Shown: piece after piece, positions 54,478 to 58,862 of the stretch
Layout: every line of letters begins with the position of its first letter
Position numbering within the stretch: position 1 is the stretch's first letter
NCBI RefSeq assembly: GCF_010727945.1
Contig: NZ_AP022569.1
Location: 1,054,001-1,118,000, forward strand
Direction of reading: 5' to 3'
DNA length: 64,000 nt
Origin: Mycobacterium cookii
GTDB taxonomy: Bacteria; Actinomycetota; Actinomycetes; Mycobacteriales; Mycobacteriaceae
Program-made: the position numbers and the translations under genes
The notes under the pieces: model-generated
Seen by the model: the letters and a program-made list of their open reading frames with translations, nothing else
Database searches by the model: none
What the model was told of the DNA's origin: nothing

Positions 54478-55755
54478 GTGAGTATGCGGATTGCGTTGCT
54501 GTCGTATCGCAGCAAGACGCACTGCGGCGGCCAGGGCGTTTACGTCCGCCACCTGAGCCGCGGACTGATCGAACTGGGACACCAGGTCGAGGTCTTCTCC
54601 GGTCAGCCCTACCCCGACGAACTCGACCCGCGGGTAGTGCTGACCGAGGTGCCCAGCCTCGACATGTATCGCGAACCCGACCCCTTCCGCATCCCGCATC
54701 CCCGCGAGATTCGGGACCGCATCGACCTGCTGGAACTGGCCGCGGTGTGGACCGCGGGCTTCCCCGAGCCGCGGACCTTCAGCCTGCGTGCTGCGCGCCT
54801 GCTGGCCGACCGGCTCGGGGACTTCGACATCGTGCACGACAACCAGAGTCTGGGCGTCGGCCTGCTGACGATCGCGCAGACCGGCATGCCGGTGGTGGCG
54901 ACCGTGCACCACCCGATCACCCGCGACCGCATCGTGGACCTCGCCGCCGCGAAATGGTGGCGCAAACCGTCGGTGCGCCGCTGGTACGGCTTCCTGAAGA
55001 TGCAGGAGCGGGTGGCCCGCAGCATTCCGGAGTTGCTGACGGTCTCCTCGTCGTCGGCCGCCGACGTCACCACCGACTTCGGAGTGGACCCGGACCAACT
55101 GCACGTCGTACCGCTGGGTGTCGACACCGCGTTGTTCAAGCCGTCGGCGCAGCCCCGCGTTCCCGGTCGCATCATCGCGATCGCGAGCGCCGACCGGCCA
55201 CTCAAAGGCGTCGGGCACCTGCTGCATGCGGTGGCCAAGCTGCGGACCGAACACGACCTGGAGCTGCAGCTGGTCGCCAAGCTGGAACCCAACGGCCCGA
55301 CCGAAAAGCTGATCGCCGAGCTCGGCATCTCCGACATCGTCCACACCTCCAGCGGACTCGCCGACGCCGAGCTGGCACGCCTGTTCGCATCCGCGGAAAT
55401 CGCTTGCATCCCTTCGTTGTACGAAGGATTCTCGCTTCCGGCGGTCGAAGCGATGGCCAGCGGTACGCCGATCGTGGCCAGCCGGGCCGGCGCGCTGCCC
55501 GAGGTGCTGGGTCCCGACGGCGAATGCGCCAGATTGGTGCGCCCCGGGGACGCGGGCGAGTTGATCCGGGTCGTCGGCGAGCTGCTGGCCTCCCCCGACC
55601 AGCTGCACCGACTCGGCGCGGCCGGTCGCCGTCGCGCCGTCGAGGTGTTCAGCTGGGAATCGGTGGCCGCGCAGACCGTGCGCGTCTACGAGCGCGCCAT
55701 CGCGCGCAGCACCCCGGTCCACGATGCGAGTCAGGTTGTGGGCGATCCGTGCTGA
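54478..55755 (+). CDS. GT4-family glycosyltransferase
   Basis: The protein is 425 residues. It starts SMRIALLSYRSKTHCGGQGVY, has VVPLGVDTALFK at the domain hinge, and ends the donor domain with PSLYEGFSLPAVEAMASGTPIVAS, the GT4 Glu-containing motif. It retains the anomeric configuration and uses a nucleotide sugar. GTG 54478 and ATG 54484 are both possible starts. Its last seven bases overlap the following methyltransferase start. Confidence 0.88.
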   Translation: MSMRIALLSYRSKTHCGGQGVYVRHLSRGLIELGHQVEVFSGQPYPDELDPRVVLTEVPSLDMYREPDPFRIPHPREIRDRIDLLELAAVWTAGFPEPRTFSLRAARLLADRLGDFDIVHDNQSLGVGLLTIAQTGMPVVATVHHPITRDRIVDLAAAKWWRKPSVRRWYGFLKMQERVARSIPELLTVSSSSAADVTTDFGVDPDQLHVVPLGVDTALFKPSAQPRVPGRIIAIASADRPLKGVGHLLHAVAKLRTEHDLELQLVAKLEPNGPTEKLIAELGISDIVHTSSGLADAELARLFASAEIACIPSLYEGFSLPAVEAMASGTPIVASRAGALPEVLGPDGECARLVRPGDAGELIRVVGELLASPDQLHRLGAAGRRRAVEVFSWESVAAQTVRVYERAIARSTPVHDASQVVGDPC

Positions 55756-56480
55756 CGGTGGATTTCGACCGCCTCGGAATCGGTGACGGCGCCAAGGTCA
55801 TCGACGTCGGGTGCGGTGCGGGGCGGCATAGCTTCGAGGCCTACCGCCGCGGTGCCGACGTCGTGGCATTCGACCAGAACGCCGCCGAGCTCGACGACGT
55901 GGCCACGCTGTTGCGCGCCATGGCCGATGCCGGCGAAGCACCGGCCTCGGCGCGCGCCGAATCCGTCGTCGGGGACGCACGCGCGTTGCCCTACCCCGAC
56001 CAGACGTTCGACTGCGTCATAGCATCCGAGATCCTCGAACACGTCCCGGCCGACGACGAGGTGATCGCCGAGCTGATTCGCGTGCTCAAGGTCGGCGGCA
56101 CGCTGGCCGTCACGGTGCCCCGCTGGTTACCTGAACAGTTGTGCTGGTTGCTGTCCGACGACTACCACAGCAACGAGGGCGGTCACATCCGCATCTACCG
56201 GGCGGACCGGCTGCGCGGCAAGATCACCGGCCGCGGTATGACCTTCACCCACACGCATCACTCGCACGCACTGCACGCCCCGTTCTGGTGGCTGAAATGC
56301 CTTGTCGGCGTGGAGAAGTCCGACCACCCCGCCGTTGTCGCGTACCACAAGATGCTGGTGTGGGACATGATGCGGCGACCGTTGCTGACCCGAGTCGCAG
56401 AATCGACGCTGAATCCGTTGATCGGCAAGAGCGTCGCGCTGTATTTCGAGAAACCGGTGTCCGCCGTTGAACTGGTCTGA
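55749..56480 (+). CDS. Class I SAM-dependent methyltransferase (Methyltransf_11 type)
   Basis: The protein is 243 residues from GTG 55749. The SAM motif is AKVIDVGCGAGRHSFEA, with VVAFDQNAAEL, DQTFDCVIASEILEHVP and LKVGGTLAVTVPRW as the usual post-motifs. It is the second gene of the operon and shares overlapping ends with both neighbours. The substrate may be the glycosylated product of the preceding enzyme. Confidence 0.83.
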   Translation: MLTVDFDRLGIGDGAKVIDVGCGAGRHSFEAYRRGADVVAFDQNAAELDDVATLLRAMADAGEAPASARAESVVGDARALPYPDQTFDCVIASEILEHVPADDEVIAELIRVLKVGGTLAVTVPRWLPEQLCWLLSDDYHSNEGGHIRIYRADRLRGKITGRGMTFTHTHHSHALHAPFWWLKCLVGVEKSDHPAVVAYHKMLVWDMMRRPLLTRVAESTLNPLIGKSVALYFEKPVSAVELV

Positions 56481-57534
56481 ACCACCGGGCGTGCCGGGCG
56501 TCCTCTCCCCCGAACAGTGCCGCCGCACGGCGGAATCGATTGCCGCGCTGCAAGAGCGCTCGGGTGAGGTCCCGTGGTCGCAAGGTGGGCACACCGATCC
56601 GTGGGATCACGTGGAATGCGCGATGGCGCTGACCGCGGCGGGCCTGGTGGAGCCGGCGCGACGCGCCTTCGACTGGTGTCGCCATCAACAGCGTGCTGAC
56701 GGCTCCTGGCCGATCCAGTTGCGGGCCGGCGTCGTCGAAGACGCCAACAGCGACAGCAACTTCTGCGCCTATGTGGCGGTCGGAGTCTGGCACCACGTGC
56801 TGGTCACCGGCGATCGCGGCTTCGGCACAGCGATGTGGCCGACGGTACGCGCCGCCATCGACTTCGTCGTGGACCTACAGCTCGAAGGCGGTGAAATCTG
56901 CTGGGCGCGTAGCTCTTCCGGGCCTCTGGAGGAGGCGCTGCTGACCGGTTGCGCGAGCATCTTCCACAGCATCCGCTGTGCACTGGCGCTGGCGAACATG
57001 GTCGACGAGCCGCAGCCGGAGTGGGAAATGGCCGTCGGCCGGCTGGGCCATGCGATCACCGCGCATCCATCGGCGTTCACCGAGAAGCCACGTCACTCGA
57101 TGGACTGGTACTACCCGATCCTGGGTGGCGCGCTTCGCGGCCACGCGGCGGCGGCCCGAATCGCGGACCGGTGGGGCGATTTCGTGGTCGACGGCCTCGG
57201 CATCAGGTGTGTCGACGACCGGCCGTGGGTGACCGGCGCCGAGACCTGCGAGCTGGTGCTCGCCCTCGATGCGATGGGCAACCGGAAGGCGGCTCTGCAG
57301 CAGTTCGCGGCCATGCAGCATCTGCGCGAAAAGGACGGCTCCTACTGGACCGGTCTGGTGTTCAGCGACGGAAAGCGTTGGCCCGTCGAGCGAACCACCT
57401 GGACCGGCGCGGCGGTGATCCTGGCCGCCGACGCGCTGTCGCGCACCACTGCGGGCAGCGGCATCTTCCGCGGCACCGACCTGCCGGTCGGACTACAAGG
57501 CGACTACGACTGCGAGTGCGTGGTCGATCGCTAG
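56467..57534 (+). CDS. Alpha/alpha-barrel protein (squalene-cyclase/prenyltransferase-like)
   Basis: The protein is 355 residues from TTG 56467; GTG 56491 is an alternative. Repeats such as [13 protein letters not shown] carry the QxxDGSW-type motif of squalene-hopene cyclases and prenyltransferase beta subunits. The rest is helical and Trp-rich ([30 protein letters not shown]). It has no DxDD cyclase motif that I can find. Relatives are annotated prenyltransferase but are uncharacterised. It overlaps the methyltransferase stop by 14 bases. Confidence 0.72.
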
Positions 57535-58199: not shown

Positions 58200-58259
58200 C
58201 ACCGAGACGGTAACGCACCCGAGTCCGCGATCTGTTGCCGCACCTGCAGTGGTGTAGTA

Positions 58260-58277
58260 GTGTCCGGACACGTGTCC
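58260..58277. promoter_or_regulatory. Overlapping palindromes: probable TetR operator
   Basis: GTGTCCGGACAC (58260-58271) and GGACACGTGTCC (58266-58277) are both perfect 12-base palindromes and overlap by six bases. The second reaches into the first codons of the TetR gene (GTG 58272). Its core is identical to the palindrome before the glycosyltransferase operon. Confidence 0.65.
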
Positions 58278-58862
58278 AACCCGGTTGCTCGGGAATCGAC
58301 CAGACGACGACTCACCGCCAAGCAGGCCGATACCGTTGACCGGCTGGGCCAGGCGGCGATCGGCGTACTCGGCCGAGAAGGTTTCTCCGGGTTGACGATT
58401 CGTATGGTCGCAGCCGAAGCGGGGGTCGGCGCTGCGACGGCCTACACCTACTTCTCGTCCAAGGAACACCTTGTCGCAGAAGTCTTCTGGCGACGGCTGG
58501 CATCCAGCCCGGTGCCGCCGACCGATTCGCCGGATTCGACCGTTCGGGTGATCGCGGTGCTGCGTCAGATCGCCCTGCTGGTTGCCGACGAGCCCGAGCT
58601 GGCCGGCGCGGTGACCAACGCGTTGCTGGGCAAAGACCCTGAGGTCGAGCATCTGCGGGTGCGTATCGGCCGCGAAATCCACCAGCGGCTTGTCACCGCG
58701 GTGGGCTCCGATCACAGTCCGGACGTGGTGGAGTCGCTCGAGCTGCTCTACGCCGGAGCCCTGGTGCGCGCCGGCATGGGTTATGCCTCCTACGTCCAGA
58801 TCGCCGACCGGCTGGAGACGTCGGCGCGGCTGCTGTTGGCCGGCCGCTCGAACTCGCCCTGA
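58272..58862 (+). CDS. TetR-family transcription regulator
   Basis: The protein is 196 residues from GTG 58272. The helix-turn-helix is [35 protein letters not shown]. The ligand domain follows. Autoregulation is likely because its start lies in the palindromic region. It probably controls the divergent methyltransferase and the glycosyltransferase operon through the shared operator. Confidence 0.87.

What the first reader, a model, noticed from the sequence alone, without database searches (positions are those of the whole stretch)
54478..58862. Possible undescribed biosynthetic/modification system under TetR control
A GT4 glycosyltransferase, a methyltransferase and an uncharacterised alpha/alpha-barrel protein overlap in one operon, with a second methyltransferase and a TetR regulator next to it. 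The combination suggests a sugar- and methyl-modified lipid or terpenoid-like product. I know of no named pathway with this gene set.
Basis: partly seen in the sequence, partly recalled or inferred. Interest (0 to 1): 0.75.

Follow-up and report, generated by a model that had tools for sequence, protein, structure and literature searches.

The report
Mycobacterial methylmannose polysaccharide gene cluster
These genes make a known sugar polymer of mycobacteria (methylmannose polysaccharide); the pathway is already described, but the neighbouring switch gene and its DNA sites look like a control layer shared with a sterol-enzyme operon, which I did not find described.

Summary
The genes are real and at the stated coordinates, but the system is not undescribed. 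It is the four-gene cluster for 3-O-methylmannose polysaccharide (MMP): manT, pmeT3, mmpH, meT1 (PMC9883506). The "uncharacterised alpha/alpha barrel" matches the solved MMP endomannosidase MmpH (7qsj, E 6e-189), the GT4 matches ManT (7qsg, E 6e-214), the second methyltransferase matches 6g7d (E 8e-106). All 11 MmpH and 10 ManT residues checked are kept. The product is a cytoplasmic polysaccharide, not a terpenoid.

The paper's main text does not mention the TetR gene. Its orthologue occurs in 82 of 119 MmpH-bearing genomes and 0 of 29 without. A GGACA-NN-TGTCC palindrome lies just after the manT -10 box in 99 of 99 readable loci (at most one mismatch); another covers the tetR start codon. A 46% identical paralogue beside CYP51 carries the same site. 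Twenty TetR-less loci, one clade, all keep the manT site; in 20 TetR-less genomes (14 the same) 37 of 40 exact sites lie at manT or at the paralogue. I infer that TetR represses MMP synthesis and that the CYP51-side regulator takes over in that clade. No binding was tested.

The parts
54478..55755 (+). manT: GT4 alpha-(1->4)-mannosyltransferase of MMP
   Evidence: PDB 7qsg E 6e-214; 10 of 10 checked residues kept; 7QSG is ManT per PMC9883506
55749..56480 (+). pmeT3: putative 3-O-methyltransferase of MMP
   Evidence: Methyltransf_11; no close solved relative (best E 3e-13); assigned by its place in the conserved order and by the paper, where it is putative too
56467..57534 (+). mmpH: MMP endomannosidase, (alpha/alpha)6 barrel
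   Evidence: PDB 7qsj E 6e-189, residues 6-353; 11 of 11 checked residues kept
57531..58199 (-). meT1: MMP 1-O-methyltransferase
   Evidence: PDB 6g7d E 8e-106; that 6g7d is MeT1 is recalled; place in the conserved order
58272..58862 (+). tetR: probable repressor of the cluster and of itself
   Evidence: TetR_N; orthologue only in MmpH-bearing genomes; start codon by conservation
54364..54392 (+). manT promoter: TTGCAT, 17 bases, TATAGT
   Evidence: hexamers read at these places; TATAGT in 87 of 99 loci
54395..54406 (.). operator-like palindrome at manT (AGACACGTGTCC)
   Evidence: GGACA-NN-TGTCC with at most one mismatch in 99 of 99 loci
58235..58263 (+). tetR promoter-like hexamers: TTGCCG, 17 bases, TAGTGT
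   Evidence: TAGYGT in 79 of 80 loci
58266..58277 (.). operator-like palindrome over the tetR start codon (GGACACGTGTCC)
   Evidence: 80 of 80 loci with at most two mismatches, 57 exact

Best explanation
The cluster makes and renews 3-O-methylmannose polysaccharide. MmpH cuts mature MMP inside the chain, ManT extends the pieces with alpha-(1->4)-mannose from GDP-mannose, pMeT3 presumably methylates O-3, MeT1 blocks the free reducing end. These steps are published for the M. hassiacum and M. smegmatis enzymes (pMeT3 only as putative) and are inferred here by homology. The adjacent TetR most likely represses manT-pmeT3-mmpH and its own gene by binding a GGACA-NN-TGTCC palindrome that lies two bases after the -10 box of manT and over the start of tetR. 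It is a paralogue of the TetR beside CYP51, which has the same sites. Where the local TetR is missing, that paralogue probably binds the manT site. The ligand is unknown; a sterol or lipid is a guess.
For: Solved-structure matches and kept active-site residues. Order kept in 99 of 100 loci. TetR orthologue in 82 of 119 MmpH-bearing and 0 of 29 other genomes. Palindrome in 99 of 99 manT promoters and 80 of 80 tetR starts, against 0.05% exact and 0.9% one-mismatch in shuffled promoters. Paralogue 46% identical with the same recognition-helix core and two sites each in 20 of 20 TetR-less genomes. In those 20 genomes 37 of 40 exact GGACAYRTGTCC sites are at manT or the paralogue.
Against: No expression or binding data. 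37 of 119 MmpH-bearing genomes lack the TetR orthologue. In the window alone the loose two-mismatch scan found fewer sites than chance (3 against 6.3). The tetR site overlaps coding sequence, so part of its conservation may be coding. Loci are related, so counts are not independent, and the shuffles were single-base. Among 20 TetR-bearing genomes one has no exact site and others have up to nine, most of which were not examined. An exact site lies beside the paralogue in only 9 of 11 TetR-bearing and 9 of 11 MmpH-less genomes compared by hand.
Confidence: 0.93

Rival explanations
1. An undescribed lipid or terpenoid pathway.
For: The barrel protein has no Pfam family and a marginal match to an oxidosqualene cyclase model (E 0.0085).
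Against: 7qsj match at E 6e-189 with all checked catalytic residues kept; whole cluster matches the MMP cluster.
Confidence: 0.02
2. The TetR gene is only a neighbour and regulates something else; the manT palindrome is bound by another protein or is part of the promoter.
For: All 20 TetR-less loci keep the palindrome, so the local TetR is not needed for its conservation.
Against: The same palindrome covers the tetR start; the orthologue is found only with MmpH; in TetR-less genomes the site also lies at the related TetR beside CYP51.
Confidence: 0.2
3. The local TetR activates rather than represses, or works against the CYP51-side TetR on a shared site.
For: No expression data exclude it; both proteins share the site type.
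Against: The palindrome lies two bases downstream of the -10 box, the usual place of a repressor site (general knowledge).
Confidence: 0.1

Closest known systems
MMP gene cluster of M. hassiacum, M. smegmatis and M. avium (PMC9883506)
   Same: Same four genes; close matches to the solved ManT and MmpH; same active-site residues where checked
   Different: The paper's main text says nothing of the TetR gene or its sites (whole-word search); figures and supplements not seen
Rv0767c-type TetR beside CYP51 and its 'motif X' (PMC6593523; a motif also listed in PMC4482099)
   Same: 46% identical TetR, same helix core [22 protein letters not shown] sites, GTG start inside the site in the window's genome
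   Different: Sits with aldehyde dehydrogenase, P450s including CYP51, and a short-chain dehydrogenase. The main text of PMC6593523 names no glycosyltransferase or methyltransferase; its operon list is in a supplement I could not read. The name Rv0767c for the paralogue here rests on recalled gene order

Membership tests
MMP biosynthetic gene cluster | ManT orthologue with catalytic and donor-site residues | tested here: met
   7qsg E 6e-214; 10 of 10 residues
MMP biosynthetic gene cluster | MmpH orthologue with D47, D50, E262 and binding residues | tested here: met
   7qsj E 6e-189; 11 of 11 residues
MMP biosynthetic gene cluster | MeT1 orthologue | tested here: met
   6g7d E 8e-106; the link of 6g7d to MeT1 is recalled
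MMP biosynthetic gene cluster | pMeT3 in the cluster | tested here: met
   methyltransferase in the same place in 99 of 100 loci; its activity is unproven in print as well
MMP biosynthetic gene cluster | Strain makes MMP | not testable with these tools
   needs extraction and mass spectrometry
Rv0767c-type TetR regulon (motif X) | Related TetR with the same recognition helix | tested here: met
   46% identity; helix core shared with 20 of 20 paralogues
Rv0767c-type TetR regulon (motif X) | Same operator sequence as published motif X | tested here: inconclusive
   same palindrome at the paralogue here, but motif X is shown only in a figure that is not held
Rv0767c-type TetR regulon (motif X) | Induction by sterols | not testable with these tools
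   no expression data for these genes

The most novel reading that the evidence does not exclude
A TetR paralogue of the CYP51-side regulator controls MMP synthesis through a shared GGACA-NN-TGTCC operator. One clade lost the local TetR, and there the MMP operon answers directly to the CYP51-side regulator, so that the methylated polysaccharide and sterol-enzyme genes share one signal.
Probability: 0.5. Interest if true: 0.5.

Novelty: already known. Interest (0 to 1): 0.3.

Why it matters
Identifying the cluster closes the question of an undescribed pathway. The regulatory reading would matter because the role of MMP is unsettled (fatty-acid metabolism, growth in the cold) and I found nothing in print on what switches it on. 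A site shared with a CYP51-side regulator gives a testable signal, and the clade without the local TetR is a natural experiment.

Tried and rejected
Rejected: lipid or terpenoid pathway. Rejected: TetR start at 58260. The two-mismatch scan of the window was uninformative (3 hits, 6.3 expected), so conservation across loci was tested instead. Set aside as targets: three further core sites in the window's genome at C1:80177, 3296054 and 4607037, which fall inside long ORFs. A third TetR group (38-42% identical) in some TetR-less genomes showed only scattered sites and was not pursued. A motif search by exact palindromes alone was too coarse. In one search loci of minus-strand matches were read in the wrong orientation; one search repeats it rightly. 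Not used: structure prediction, fold search, the large protein search, viral scans.

Rows dropped before counts: of 119 MmpH-bearing genomes 100 loci were fetched: 80 of the 82 with the TetR (in two the parts are on different contigs) and 20 of the 37 without (7 left out as fragmentary or near contig ends, then the first 20 of 30). One of the 100 has no manT, hence 99 promoters. The 20 TetR-less genomes searched for sites share 14 with the 20 fetched; together 26 of 37. One search scored at most 21 candidates per genome; one search scored up to 150 in 20 TetR-less genomes and found no orthologue.

Full report
WHAT IS THERE. The five ORFs exist with the stated ends. On the + strand 54478-55755, 55749-56480 and 56467-57534 overlap by 7 and 14 bases; 57531-58199 runs on the - strand and meets the third end to end (4 bases); the TetR gene ends at 58862. 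Pfam gives GT4 domains, Methyltransf_11, nothing for the third, Methyltransf_24 and TetR_N.

WHAT IT IS. Comparison with solved structures settles the identity. The barrel protein matches 7qsj, named methylmannose polysaccharide hydrolase (MmpH), at E 6.4e-189 over residues 6-353. The GT4 matches 7qsg at E 6e-214; its PDB label is 'D-inositol 3-phosphate glycosyltransferase', but PMC9883506 states that 7QSG is ManT and 7QSJ is MmpH. The - strand methyltransferase matches 6g7d at E 8.4e-106; that this is MeT1 is recalled, and the 2019 paper was not held. Methyltransferase 1 has no close solved relative. The 11 MmpH and 10 ManT residues that I took from the paper's structure sections are all kept. 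The paper (sections 4, 6, 11, 14, 15, 16 read) describes the same four genes: ManT adds alpha-(1->4)-mannose, MmpH cuts mature MMP into primers, MeT1 blocks the reducing end, pMeT3 is the putative 3-O-methyltransferase; a M. smegmatis mmpH deletion makes no MMP and grows more slowly at 15 degrees. So the cluster idea is right and the claim of no named pathway is wrong.

DISTRIBUTION. In 148 genomes of the genus MmpH is found in 119 and MeT1 in 118. Of the 119 I fetched 100 loci. The order manT, pmeT3, mmpH, meT1 (reversed) is kept in 99; the other has no manT on its contig.

THE TETR GENE. The TetR orthologue (66-100% identity) occurs in 82 genomes, all among the 119 with MmpH, none among the 29 without. 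In 69 it lies within 2.5 kb of mmpH, in 11 at 2.6-8.9 kb, in 2 on another contig; 37 MmpH-bearing genomes lack it. On a tree of the joined ManT, pMeT3 and MmpH sequences the 20 fetched TetR-less loci form one group (one change, 0 of 500 shuffles as low). With the midpoint root they sit inside TetR-bearing lineages, which suggests one loss, but that root is for drawing only. Named loci without the TetR include M. scrofulaceum, M. colombiense, M. szulgai, M. simulans, M. bohemicum and M. lepraemurium; with it M. fragae, M. kyorinense, Mycolicibacterium litorale and M. rhodesiae.

THE SITE. Upstream of manT a sigma-70-like promoter (TTGC-type -35, 17 bases, TATAGT in 87 of 99) is followed two bases later by GGACA-NN-TGTCC. 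It is present with at most one mismatch in 79 of 79 TetR-bearing loci (61 exact) and exactly in 20 of 20 TetR-less loci; in shuffled promoters 0.05% are exact and 0.9% have one mismatch (n = 1980, single-base shuffles). Over the tetR start it is present in 80 of 80 (57 exact, 22 with one, 1 with two mismatches). The codon inside it is GTG in 79 and ATG in 1, which places the start at 58272. A -10-like hexamer lies just before, so the message may be leaderless (inference). Of 80 named loci 78 have a readable manT upstream region and all 78 have the site with at most one mismatch, 53 exact; they overlap the first set.

THE PARALOGUE. The window's genome has one other close TetR, 46% identical, at C1:2744610-2745140, with two core sites beside it, one holding its GTG start. 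Its neighbours are an aldehyde dehydrogenase, a P450 and a short-chain dehydrogenase and a P450 matching CYP51 'RV0764C' (1e9x, E 6e-245); from recalled gene order it is the Rv0767c type. In 20 TetR-less genomes (14 of them in the fetched set) exact GGACAYRTGTCC sites number 40: 18 at manT, 19 at this paralogue, 3 elsewhere. Two genomes without an exact manT site have another centre. With a free centre all 20 paralogues have two sites (one of the 40 with a mismatch), and all 20 share [10 protein letters not shown] with the window's TetR. Comparing coordinates by hand, an exact site lies beside the paralogue in 9 of 11 MmpH-less and 9 of 11 TetR-bearing genomes whose paralogue coordinates were printed. 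Of 20 TetR-bearing genomes 19 have exact sites, up to nine, most not examined; of 29 MmpH-less genomes 20 have one to three. In the window's genome the 11-base core occurs at seven places: manT, tetR, two at the paralogue, three inside ORFs.

LITERATURE ON THE REGULATOR. PMC6593523 (abstract passages, section 8, other passages) reports a palindromic 'motif X' in phytosterol-induced genes of Mycobacterium sp. VKM Ac-1817D, assigned to the Rv0767c orthologue and present near its start codon, with 14 operons including P450s, dehydrogenases and three TetR genes. PMC4482099 (passages) lists a motif for Rv0767c below its cut-off. PMC10312376 (passages) says sites bound by Rv0767c are rich in GAC and GTC, in keeping with this palindrome. 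None of the passages seen names the MMP genes; supplements could not be read, so the manT operon may be listed there. PMC9883506 has no TetR, repressor, operon, promoter or transcription as whole words. A search for the M. smegmatis gene names found only that paper. That the MMP regulator is undescribed rests and on an open-access library.

HOW IT PROBABLY WORKS. Enzyme steps: published for homologues, inferred here. Repression by TetR: inferred from site position, conservation and co-occurrence. Site shared with the CYP51-side TetR: shown as sequence, not as binding. Take-over in the TetR-less clade: inferred. Ligand: a guess. My 0.93 is for the MMP identity; for the repressor model I put about 0.7, and for the take-over with a shared signal about 0.5.

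VERDICT. A real, conserved cluster, already known as the MMP cluster, with a modest and testable regulatory addition.

Noticed in passing
window 53710-54270 (-): A pncA-like nicotinamidase lies just upstream of manT and diverges from it; within the fetched stretches a pncA match appears in 11 of 100 loci.
   Followed up: partly
window 58895-59410 (+): DUF6328 membrane-protein-like gene directly after tetR (E 8e-52); a match is found in 16 of 100 loci. Its role is unknown.
   Followed up: partly
window 59319-60449 (+): ORF with a DoxX match (E 7e-9) followed by charged repeats of the type ERGSEWADIAR.
   Followed up: no
G028 genome: Nine exact GGACAYRTGTCC sites, the most of the 20 TetR-bearing genomes searched, hinting at a wider regulon.
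   Followed up: no
G030:C61:9547-10134: A second copy of the MMP-type TetR (84% identical) away from the cluster, beside the one at the cluster.
   Followed up: no
L244 and L248: Two records titled Bifidobacterium breve MAGs carry mycobacterial MMP genes, which looks like mislabelled or mixed bins.
   Followed up: no
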